From an uncultured archaeon (lineage in GTDB: Archaea; Thermoplasmatota; E2; DHVEG-1), in NCBI GenBank assembly GCA_902384685.1, contig CABMCU010000093.1, positions 1 to 38,202 on the forward strand: a DNA stretch of 38,202 nucleotides, read 5' to 3'. The translations under genes were made by a program, and so were the position numbers. This document shows, piece by piece, positions 4,839-7,845 of this stretch; position 1 is the stretch's first letter, and each line of letters begins with the position of its first letter. The notes beneath the pieces are model-generated. The model was not told where the DNA came from and searched no databases. It saw nothing but the letters and a program-made list of their open reading frames with translations.

Positions 4839-5306
4839 TTAAAAAATCTTTGGTATCATTCTCCAAGGGACTTTTTTCATATATTCTTTGTAGAGTTCAC
4901 CATACTGTTTTATTAACAGTTTTTCTTCATCGATGATACTCCAAATCATTATTGGTATTGCGATAATAGCGATTATGAGTGCGAACACGGAATAGAAAAA
5001 CAACGCAAGACCAAATCCGACGATGAGTAGGGATGTGTAATGAGGATGTCTGATGTATTGAAAAATTCCGCGAGTGACGAGTTGTCCTTTATAAGTTTTA
5101 TGCCAGAAAATCTCCCATTTAAAATAGACAAAAGTACCAAGAAGAAAAATGGTAAATCCTAGTATAATCGTTATTAATTTAGGTAATGGAATTTCCCAAA
5201 CACCATAACATGCGGTAAGTGGCCCAATGAGAATAATAAGAAGCAATGGTGCATAGTGTACAATGAACAATGCTCGTAGTTCTTTGGGTGGCTTGTAATG
5301 GAACAT
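4839..5306 (-). CDS. Isoprenylcysteine carboxyl methyltransferase (ICMT)/PEMT-family membrane methyltransferase
   Basis: 155 aa, multi-TM; TRGIFQYIRHPHYTSLLIVGFG...DEEKLLIKQYGELYKEYMKKVPWRMIP matches the ICMT-like signature. Confidence 0.85.
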   Translation of the reverse strand: MFHYKPPKELRALFIVHYAPLLLIILIGPLTACYGVWEIPLPKLITIILGFTIFLLGTFVYFKWEIFWHKTYKGQLVTRGIFQYIRHPHYTSLLIVGFGLALFFYSVFALIIAIIAIPIMIWSIIDEEKLLIKQYGELYKEYMKKVPWRMIPKIF

Positions 5307-5311
5307 AGTTG

Positions 5312-6070
5312 TTATATGATTTGTATACCGCCTTTGCCAATCTCGATATTTTGTGGTTTGAGCGTATGCTTGGTGCTTCGCATTTTCATAACGGCAAGCT
5401 TCCGCCGATCCATGGTCGGATCAAGGCTGAGAATGATGACGCCGTCTGCAAGGAACTCTGATAGCCCGTCGCGGGAGTAATTTGTAGAACCAGATGGAAG
5501 TTCTGAGGTAACAACTGCTGTACACTTTGATGTTTCTAATGCGTTCATGATATAATGGAGATGTAATCGTCGAACTGGAAAATTACCAGTCGATATTTCA
5601 TCGTGATCTATGCTGTCGGTCTCGCTGGCGAATTCCGGATTATTAATGTAGATAGGCATTTCAGAAAGGGGGGTAATAGAATCAAGAACGACGCGATCAT
5701 AATTTCCAGAAAGAATTTCGTTGACCATTGCTTCATAGATAAGTTTTTTATTAATATTAAGGAATAGGAATTTTACTTGTCCACTCTCGATTGCTGGTTG
5801 AAAATTGATACCCAGTTCTTGTGCTTGGAGTAAGAGTCCTTCGATTTTTTTATCGAGTGTAAGGTAGAGGCATTTTTTTCCTTCTTGAATTCCCATGGCG
5901 ATAAATTGATAACAGAAGATAGATTTTCCGCTGCCTGGTGGACCTGAAATTAGTGTGATGCTTTCTCTTGGGATTCCACCTGATAATAGTTCATCAAGTC
6001 CTTTAATACCTGTTTTGATTCGTTCTATTTTTCTCACTGTAACTTTATCATCGGTTTGGATGAGTGCCAT
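5312..6070 (-). CDS. KaiC/RAD55-type RecA-superfamily ATPase (copy A)
   Basis: 252 aa; GIKGLDELLSGGIPRESITLISGPPGSGKS (Walker A), DRVVLDSITPL (Walker B), DRRKLAVMKMRSTKH C-terminal motif. Confidence 0.9.
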   Translation of the reverse strand: MALIQTDDKVTVRKIERIKTGIKGLDELLSGGIPRESITLISGPPGSGKSIFCYQFIAMGIQEGKKCLYLTLDKKIEGLLLQAQELGINFQPAIESGQVKFLFLNINKKLIYEAMVNEILSGNYDRVVLDSITPLSEMPIYINNPEFASETDSIDHDEISTGNFPVRRLHLHYIMNALETSKCTAVVTSELPSGSTNYSRDGLSEFLADGVIILSLDPTMDRRKLAVMKMRSTKHTLKPQNIEIGKGGIQII

Positions 6071-6181
6071 AATCCATCCTCAAAACTGTATAGATGTGCG
6101 TATATAATTATTTTCTCCTCTCTTTTCTCCAGTATGATTATTATTGGCATGGTTTTTAGATACTATATTAATATTTATGAA

Positions 6182-6195
6182 AATGTTTATATATT
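6182..6195 (+). promoter_or_regulatory. Putative TATA/promoter element of small gene A (AATGTTTATATATT)
   Basis: Exact 14-nt match to 7538-7551; 57 nt upstream of ATG 6239, versus 53 nt for the other copy. Confidence 0.45.
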
Positions 6196-6238
6196 TATAA
6201 ATTAAAATATACTATACAGATGAATGAGACTGATAAGC

Positions 6239-6466
6239 ATGAACACAAAGGACATTAAAATCTGGATTTGGGTGCAACACGATAGAATACTCAAAGCCAT
6301 CTCAAATAAAGAAGCAGGCACCCTGACCATCTACGATGATTGCGATAATATCATCCTGCGACGAACTGGACTATCAAAACAACAAATCAAAACCATTGAT
6401 CTCATTTTTGCGACCTACAACCTTAAAGGAATTAGGGACCATAAAGAACCATTCACCTACTTGTGA
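6239..6466 (+). CDS. Small conserved protein, paralog of 7591-7845 (KaiC-neighbour family)
   Basis: 75 aa from ATG 6239 (ORF track starts at 6224); MNTKDIKIWIWVQHDRILKAISNKEAG...IILRRTGLSKQQIKTIDLIF aligns with 7591-7845 with one 1-residue gap. Confidence 0.75.
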   Translation: MNTKDIKIWIWVQHDRILKAISNKEAGTLTIYDDCDNIILRRTGLSKQQIKTIDLIFATYNLKGIRDHKEPFTYL

Positions 6467-7263
6467 TTAGAAAGCATCATCTGCCGCTCTGGGTACACTT
6501 TTATCCCTTGAGAGGTTATTTCTAAAGAAAACACTTTTTTCTGATGGTTCGAATATCGCATCTTCAAAACTTCAATTGCGTTCTCCCGTCGATCACCTAA
6601 TTGAATATTATATAATACAAGAATTCCATCTGCCAAAAACTCCTCGATGCCAGTATCACTAAACCGAGTTGGAATCTGTTCGGTCTCGGTAATCAGAAAT
6701 GATGTCGCACCAGTTTCTTCAAAGAAATTGAACAGTTGTTGCAAATATACCCGGTAGTTCTTCTCTTTGCTAATCGATGCAGAGATAACAGCGGTCAGCG
6801 AATCAACCACAATTATTTCAGGATTAAAATCCTTTGGGATAATCAACGGTTTAATCTTATACGATAACTCTGTTGCTGATCCAGACCCACTCACCGAACC
6901 AAATTTCATTCGTAAAATATCAAGTGGATTAATCTTCTGAATAAGTAACTGTCCAGAATCAACATATTTTTTTGCATCCCAACCAAACACATCCATACTA
7001 CGTTCGATCTTTTCGATACTCTCCTCGAAACTCACATACATGCAATGCTTCCCTTGAGTTACAAGATTATAACAGATCTGTCTGCAAAACGTGCTTTTCC
7101 CTGTCCCAGTCCCGCCCGCGACTAATACTGAGTTTCGCTTTGGAATACCACCTTCTGCAAATAACTTATCAAACCCAGGGATTTGGGTTTTCATTATCTG
7201 TTCTTCTTCTTTTTTCTTATTAGGATTGACATCAGCCATAGGAAAATCGCTCTCGTTTTTCAC
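6457..7263 (-). CDS. KaiC/RAD55-type RecA-superfamily ATPase (copy B)
   Basis: 268 aa; IPGFDKLFAEGGIPKRNSVLVAGGTGTGKST, CMYVSFEESIEKI (catalytic EE retained), EIIVVDSLTAV, DRRENAIEVLKMRYSNH. Confidence 0.9.
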   Translation of the reverse strand: MKNESDFPMADVNPNKKKEEEQIMKTQIPGFDKLFAEGGIPKRNSVLVAGGTGTGKSTFCRQICYNLVTQGKHCMYVSFEESIEKIERSMDVFGWDAKKYVDSGQLLIQKINPLDILRMKFGSVSGSGSATELSYKIKPLIIPKDFNPEIIVVDSLTAVISASISKEKNYRVYLQQLFNFFEETGATSFLITETEQIPTRFSDTGIEEFLADGILVLYNIQLGDRRENAIEVLKMRYSNHQKKVFSLEITSQGIKVYPERQMMLSNHK

Positions 7264-7537
7264 TCTTTAATCTGAAATCCTTAAACTCTTTATTTTCTAG
7301 AGAAGTGATCCTTGACTTATTTGAACATAGATATTGATAAGTATATTTATAATTAATACTACGCTAATTTTTCCATGGGTCACTTTCTATCCCGTTCCAT
7401 CTCTTTAACGACTACTGTGTCCATTTCTCTTATTTATATTATATAAAAGCACGTTGGTAAACTATCAGAATGAAAAAATCACTTCCTTTGATTGAGATCT
7501 TTCATCATTTTCCTCTTTTTTTTCCTGTTTTTGTCGC

Positions 7538-7551
7538 AATGTTTATATATT
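7538..7551 (+). promoter_or_regulatory. Putative TATA/promoter element of small gene B (AATGTTTATATATT)
   Basis: Identical 14-mer to 6182-6195; 53 nt upstream of ATG 7591. Confidence 0.45.
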
Positions 7552-7590
7552 GTTAAATTAATAAAATAATATATTAAAAAAGGAATTGTT

Positions 7591-7845
7591 ATGACAAGTG
7601 AACATATCTGGACTTGGCTGCAAACAAAAGGAAAAATCTTCAAGGTTATATCAGATCCAGAGCGAGGCATTATCGAAGTCATCAATGAAAAAGGAGAAAT
7701 ATTCATCCGAAAAACAAACCTGAGCAAACGACAAGTTGAAACAGTTGAAAAAAACTTTTTAAATCATATCGCAAAAAGATTAAATGGACGAGAATCTTTA
7801 ACATCATCTAAGAAACAAGACCTATTCGACCCTATGATTTCCTAA
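7591..7845 (+). CDS. Small conserved protein, paralog of 6239-6466
   Basis: 84 aa; HIWTWLQTKGKIFKVISDPERGIIEVINEKGEIFIRKTNLSKRQVETVEKNF; about 19 of 50 aligned positions identical to the 6239 gene by manual alignment. Confidence 0.78.
   Translation: MTSEHIWTWLQTKGKIFKVISDPERGIIEVINEKGEIFIRKTNLSKRQVETVEKNFLNHIAKRLNGRESLTSSKKQDLFDPMIS

What the first reader, a model, noticed from the sequence alone, without database searches (positions are those of the whole stretch)
5312..7845. Duplicated divergent module: KaiC-like ATPase plus small paralogous partner, present twice in tandem
Directly visible: two RAD55/KaiC-type ATPase genes on the minus strand (5312-6070, 6457-7263), each with a divergently transcribed small gene just upstream (6239-6466, 7591-7845). 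The small proteins are paralogs (IWxWxQ...I.K.IS..E.G......I..R.TxLSK.Q..T...F; about 19/50 identical by eye). The order ATPase(-)/small(+)/ATPase(-)/small(+) is what tandem duplication of a two-gene unit gives. I recognise no named domain in the small protein, so it may be a KaiC partner or regulator that has not been described.
Basis: partly seen in the sequence, partly recalled or inferred. Interest (0 to 1): 0.72.

Follow-up and report, generated by a model that had tools for sequence, protein, structure and literature searches.

The report
Order-specific small protein beside archaeal KaiC genes
An uncultured archaeon carries two copies of an undescribed ~80-residue protein next to two KaiC-type ATPase genes; the neat 'duplicated pair' look comes partly from a deletion, but the small protein is a real family of one archaeal order and a plausible regulator of a conserved KaiC/pilin-like gene cassette.

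Summary
In detail: two KaiC-type ATPase genes (K1, K2) and two paralogous small genes (SP1, SP2) lie where stated. The tandem-duplication reading fails. In 30 related loci the order is K1–SP1–K2, usually with a methyltransferase gene before and a pilin-like gene (c2) after; the one small gene is divergent from K1 and convergent with K2. K1 and K2 are separate ortholog lines. SP2 belongs upstream of an operon c6–c2–K2. In this window c2 and c6 were deleted: 7264–7590 still holds the last ~14 codons of c2 and the first codons and promoter of c6. SP is a genuine family without a Pfam, NCBIfam or PDB relative, confined to one Thermoplasmatota order (48 of 52 genomes; none of 28 others in the class). 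It is mostly basic, predicted ββββα, with a conserved disordered C-terminal tail. A third paralogue sits head-to-head with a UspA gene, without KaiC. K2 and c2 have paralogues inside a type IV pilus locus of the same genome. Best reading: a lineage-specific small regulator of a KaiC/pilin-like signalling cassette; transcriptional control of the divergent operons is slightly favoured over direct KaiC binding. Both are untested. The kind is known; the protein family appears undescribed.

The parts
4839..5306 (-). c3: membrane methyltransferase of the PEMT/ICMT type, 5 bp downstream of K1, probably co-transcribed with it
   Evidence: PF04191 E 2.4e-11; conserved next to K1 in nearly all SP1 loci
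5312..6070 (-). K1: KaiC-type ATPase with Walker A GPPGSGKS; conserved LDKK where K2 has the KaiC-like FEE motif
   Evidence: PF06745 158.5 bits; conservation over 29 orthologs; own clade
6071..6238 (.). Divergent intergenic region: K1 TATA-like box 6101-6113 (-), SP1 BRE/TATA box 6181-6193 (+), and an inverted repeat 6164-6193 found clearly only in this genus
   Evidence: Alignments and motif scans
6239..6466 (+). SP1: 75-aa basic small protein, predicted bbbba fold with conserved C-terminal tail EPFTYL; divergent from K1, convergent and 10 bp overlapping with K2
6457..7263 (-). K2: KaiC-type ATPase with intact Walker A and FEE motif
   Evidence: PF06745 188.2 bits; conservation over 33 orthologs
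7264..7590 (.). Deletion scar: 7297-7338(-) is the last ~14 codons of c2 (INIYVQISQGSLL*); about 7362-7400(-) is the start of c6 (KEMERDRK); 7440-7449 is the former c6 promoter; 7537-7549(+) is the SP2 TATA box
   Evidence: BLASTN to intact relatives, 81% over 255 nt (E 9e-64) and 80% over 76 nt (E 8e-14); translation; promoter alignment
7591..7845 (+). SP2: 84-aa paralogue, same predicted fold, C-terminal tail FDPMIS; ancestrally divergent from the c6-c2-K2 operon

Best explanation
SP1 and SP2 belong to an order-specific family of small basic proteins that act as local regulators of the gene groups they face head-to-head. SP1 faces the K1-methyltransferase operon and SP2 faces the operon that ended in K2 (c6, c2, K2 in relatives; only K2 here after a deletion). 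The cassette is a KaiC-type signalling module related to type IV filament accessories: K2 with the pilin-like membrane protein c2, plus K1, a KaiC with an altered catalytic site. Proposed mechanism: the SP sheet face, carrying conserved W-x-W and basic residues, contacts nucleic acid or the basal transcription machinery at the divergent promoters, while the conserved disordered C-terminal tail docks a protein, possibly a KaiC, so that KaiC state can feed back on expression. Shown: the family, its linkage, its geometry and the deletion. Predicted: the fold. Inferred: DNA binding, tail docking and feedback.
For: Three paralogue groups at three kinds of locus are almost all head-to-head with a different operon: SP1 with K1 (30 loci), SP2 with c6-c2-K2 (11) or directly K2 (2), SP3 with UspA (8). 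The SP1 block keeps its order while its outer flanks differ. Most SPs have pI 9-10. W9, W11, Q49 and E54 are nearly invariant and K19 invariant, as is nearly F72 of the tail. SP1 and SP2 models share four strands plus a helix with disordered tails. SP2, and SP1 in family f2, are followed on the same strand by receiver-domain genes (L042, L044-L048, L081, L107) or, for three SP2 loci, by RHH-like genes. Paralogues of K2 and c2 lie in a locus with a FlaI/TadA-type ATPase, T2SSF and Pilin_N proteins. Literature: KaiC ATPases as predicted regulators of archaeal type IV pili, sometimes with a predicted second component (PMC4858521); KaiC as archaeal signalling hub (cited in PMC5847659).
Against: No known DNA-binding fold or family is matched. 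The inverted repeat at the SP1 promoter is clear only in this genus, marginal against shuffles in the window itself (3/60), and absent in other genera. A conserved C-terminal tail suits a protein-protein partner just as well. High pI alone is weak evidence. No expression or binding data exist.
Confidence: 0.42

Rival explanations
1. SP is a direct protein partner of KaiC-like ATPases, a functional analogue of KaiB: its C-terminal tail or sheet face binds the K1 or K2 ring and changes ATPase or phosphorylation state.
For: SP1 is fixed between two KaiC genes in 30 loci across many genera; the tail PFx[FY]L is conserved and disordered; two genomes whose SP1/SP3-type protein lacks the tail (G036; SP3 of G022) also have no K1/K2 ortholog found.
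Against: SP3 keeps the same tail with no KaiC gene nearby; G040 has SP1 without K1 at the locus; G012 has K2 with no SP found. The tail/KaiC correlation rests on two incomplete genomes (59% and 79%).
Confidence: 0.3
2. SP is an abundant small nucleic-acid-binding or chromatin-like protein whose position beside KaiC genes is inherited synteny without functional meaning.
For: Mostly basic, small, with a consensus BRE/TATA promoter conserved across genera; present in nearly all genomes of the order.
Against: The block K1-SP1-K2 persists while its flanks change; paralogues repeat the head-to-head geometry at other loci.
Confidence: 0.18
3. Tandem duplication of an ATPase plus small-gene unit.
For: Gene order in the window alone.
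Against: Intact relatives have c2 and c6 between K2 and SP2; the window keeps a scar of both; K1 and K2 form separate ortholog groups present in most genomes; many genomes have K1-SP1-K2 without any SP2.
Confidence: 0.03

Closest known systems
Archaeal KaiC-family ATPases linked to type IV pili or archaellum (arCOG01171/01174/01175; FlaH/ArlH), PMC4858521
   Same: Single-domain KaiC ATPases next to a pilin-like gene; K2 and c2 have paralogues inside a full type IV filament locus in the same genome
   Different: The window locus has no secretion ATPase or TadC; the ArlH model score of K2 is 69.7 bits, below its cut-off of 215
KaiC plus a predicted second component in archaea (DEATH-like arCOG03758, or KaiB-like thioredoxin-fold proteins), PMC4858521
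   Same: Small gene adjacent to a KaiC-like ATPase gene, proposed regulator
   Different: SP is predicted four strands plus helix, not alpha-helical, and matches no KaiB-like Pfam model; it is divergent rather than co-transcribed
CirA/CsmR of Haloferax volcanii, PMC13286277
   Same: A KaiC-like protein acting together with a separate transcription regulator encoded near it by the archaellum genes
   Different: CsmR has an Lrp/AsnC-like DNA-binding region; SP has no recognised DNA-binding fold

Membership tests
KaiC/RecA superfamily (PF06745) | Score above the Pfam gathering cut-off and Walker A motif | tested here: met
   K1 158.5 and K2 188.2 bits against 26.6; GPPGSGKS and GGTGTGKS
KaiC/RecA superfamily (PF06745) | Paired acidic catalytic residues after Walker A (FEE motif) | tested here: inconclusive
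   K2 SFEE conserved; K1 conserved LDKK instead, over 29 orthologs; assignment of these residues as catalytic is from general knowledge
Archaellum protein ArlH/FlaH | Score above NCBIfam NF052589 cut-off | tested here: not met
   K2 69.7, K1 52.3 bits against 215
KaiB-like partner | Thioredoxin-like KaiB fold or Pfam match | tested here: not met
   No KaiB-like Pfam match; models are four strands then a helix
KaiC partner in general | Physical binding to a KaiC-like ATPase | not testable with these tools
   No complex prediction available; only linkage seen
Known archaeal DNA-binding regulator families (RHH, wHTH, others in Pfam) | Match to a family profile or solved fold | tested here: not met
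   No significant Pfam match among 51 members (best weak E 0.0067, to an unrelated family); Foldseek PDB best E 0.39; PDB sequences E >= 0.6
Tandem duplicated two-gene module | Adjacent copies arising by duplication, with no genes lost from between them | tested here: not met
Archaeal type IV pilus locus | Secretion ATPase, TadC-like protein and pilins in the locus | tested here: not met
   Not noticed around the cassette in the loci mapped (most outer neighbours were not scanned); found at the paralogous locus G000:C58

The most novel reading that the evidence does not exclude
SP is a new class of KaiC output element: a small beta-sheet nucleic-acid-binding regulator whose C-terminal tail is read by a KaiC-like ATPase, giving archaea a direct KaiC-to-promoter switch, with paralogues rewired to other operons (surface-protein/pilin-like and UspA).
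Probability: 0.15. Interest if true: 0.75.

Novelty: new member of a known kind. Interest (0 to 1): 0.42.

Why it matters
KaiC-like ATPases are proposed signalling hubs of archaea, but their outputs are mostly unknown. This family gives a compact, conserved candidate output or partner with three paralogue contexts, testable with purified proteins. It also shows how a deletion can imitate tandem duplication when one genome is read alone.

Tried and rejected
Tandem duplication: rejected by deletion scar and ortholog pattern. Known-family assignment: Pfam, NCBIfam, PHROGs, PDB sequence, PDB and viral fold searches gave nothing convincing (best viral fold E 0.0067, poorly superposed). Phage origin: no tblastn match in 50,697 phage records. 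An order-wide operator palindrome at the SP1 promoter: only clear in this genus. HbYX-like proteasome docking for the tail: considered, the third-last residue does not fit, not pursued. The SP hit in G012 (E 2.7e-4) is a chance frame, not a pseudogene. The K tree included one wrong-strand row (L003_own) and divergent paralogues on very long branches; the K1/K2 separation was judged from the remaining rows and from the order-wide searches. One Pfam query (protein 1) was in the wrong frame and is ignored; the right ORF was scanned. A frame-free Pfam scan of L086 read one strand frame only and says little.

Full report
What is there. The four ORFs are at the stated positions. SP1 and SP2 are paralogues (35% over 54 aa, E 5e-12). 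K1 and K2 are KaiC-type ATPases, 30% identical. Directly downstream of K1, 5 bp away, is a PEMT/ICMT-type membrane methyltransferase gene (c3).

The small protein is a real family. A search of 59 relatives found it in most of the order (40 genomes at a loose threshold). A profile of 51 members (A1) found it in 49 genomes of the class at E<=0.001; one of these (G012) proved to be a chance frame, leaving 48 of the 52 order genomes and none of 28 others. In 390 genomes of the phylum only one further marginal hit appeared (E 7.8e-4). Named records of close relatives are Thermoplasmatota metagenome assemblies. No Pfam, NCBIfam, PHROG or PDB family matches it significantly. AlphaFold2 gives four antiparallel strands and a helix for SP1 (pLDDT 83, pTM 0.70) and for SP2 (pLDDT 75.5, pTM 0.57), both with a disordered C-terminal tail. 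Foldseek finds no convincing solved relative (best E 0.39) or viral one. One lysine is invariant, two tryptophans in strand 1 nearly so, and the tail is conserved: EPFx[FY]L in SP1 and SP3, FDPM[IV]x in SP2. Most members have pI 9-10.

The neighbourhood. Maps of about 49 loci show a conserved block: c3(-), K1(-), SP1(+), K2(-), c2(-). SP1 is divergent from K1 and convergent with K2 in all 30 loci of the main family where both neighbours are visible. The flanks differ (ribosomal genes, CorA and others on the left; c6 or aconitase/LeuC-LeuD-like genes on the right), so this is more than passive synteny. c2 is a membrane-anchored, pilin-like protein weakly similar to DUF7289; c6 is a secreted beta-helix/PKD protein. 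SP2 lies beyond c6, divergent from the operon c6-c2-K2, in a subset of genera. A third paralogue, SP3, lies head-to-head with a UspA-type gene near dnaK, grpE and thermosome genes and convergent with a CBS-domain gene in most cases, with no KaiC at the locus (names of these neighbours are read from their sequences, not profile-tested).

Why it is not a tandem duplication. In the window c2 and c6 are missing and the genome has only distant c2 paralogues (35% or less). The 327-bp gap 7264-7590 aligns in two parts to intact relatives: 7264-7338 to the K2-c2 spacer and c2 3' end (80% over 76 nt), and 7337-7590 to the c6 5' end and promoter region (81% over 255 nt). Its minus strand still reads INIYVQISQGSLL*, the c2 C-terminus, and KEMERDRK, the c6 start. 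So a deletion joined c6's start to c2's end and placed K2 next to SP2. G004 also lacks c2 and c6 there; since the window's nearest relatives (G001, G008) keep them, that loss looks independent (inference). K1 and K2 form separate ortholog groups in nearly all genomes of the order.

What the ATPases may do. K2 keeps KaiC-like SFEE; K1 has a conserved LDKK there in 29 orthologs, so K1 may bind ATP but hydrolyse it poorly (inference). Paralogues of K2 and c2 lie close together inside a type IV filament locus of the same genome (G000:C58): FlaI/TadA-type ATPase, T2SSF protein, two Pilin_N proteins, DUF7289 protein, KaiC. This agrees with published association of archaeal KaiC ATPases with type IV pili and their proposed role as regulators or signalling hubs (PMC4858521; PMC5847659). 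The mBio 2017 paper that proposed the hub idea is not held here and was not read.

Mechanism. Two readings stand. (A) SP is a local regulator of the divergent operon. For: three paralogue groups share the head-to-head position with different targets; most are basic; receiver-domain or RHH-like genes follow SP2 and the f2 SP1 at several loci. Against: no DNA-binding family; the promoter palindrome is not conserved beyond the genus. (B) SP is a KaiC partner. For: fixed place between two KaiC genes, conserved tail, and tail absence in two genomes without K1/K2 orthologs. Against: SP3 context, SP1 without K1 at the locus in G040, K2 without SP in G012. I favour A slightly (0.42 against 0.30); they are not exclusive.

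Novelty. The kind, a KaiC-like ATPase with a small accessory gene, is known. The protein family appears undescribed in the libraries searched. Interest is moderate.

Noticed in passing
L073, L075, L078, L080, L082, L088 (upstream of SP3): A conserved micro-ORF of about 39 aa (e.g. MLMIVGQISSPEEANEIEYITKNFVVANRIKELARILKH) lies just upstream of SP3 on the same strand, between SP3 and the UspA gene.
   Followed up: no
G000:C26:34267-35031 (L100:6267-7031): A K1 paralogue in the window's own genome is split by one in-frame TAA; homologues in other genomes of the order are intact. Pseudogene or assembly error.
   Followed up: no
L048:4731-5437 (G005): K1 is broken into two overlapping frames in this one genome, as by a frameshift.
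   Followed up: no
window:7957-10185 (-): Secreted gingipain-type C25 peptidase with propeptide and PKD domains; a second C25-like protease lies next to the K1 paralogue (L100:2882-5032).
   Followed up: no
L105:1-5500 (G012): In G012, K2 sits in a cluster of receiver-domain and histidine kinase genes and a small KaiC-like gene, with no SP: a different signalling context for the same ATPase.
   Followed up: partly
L081:4903-5205 and L107:209-511 (family f2): A 100-aa receiver-like protein gene follows SP1 on the same strand, between SP1 and K2; seen only in this family.
   Followed up: partly
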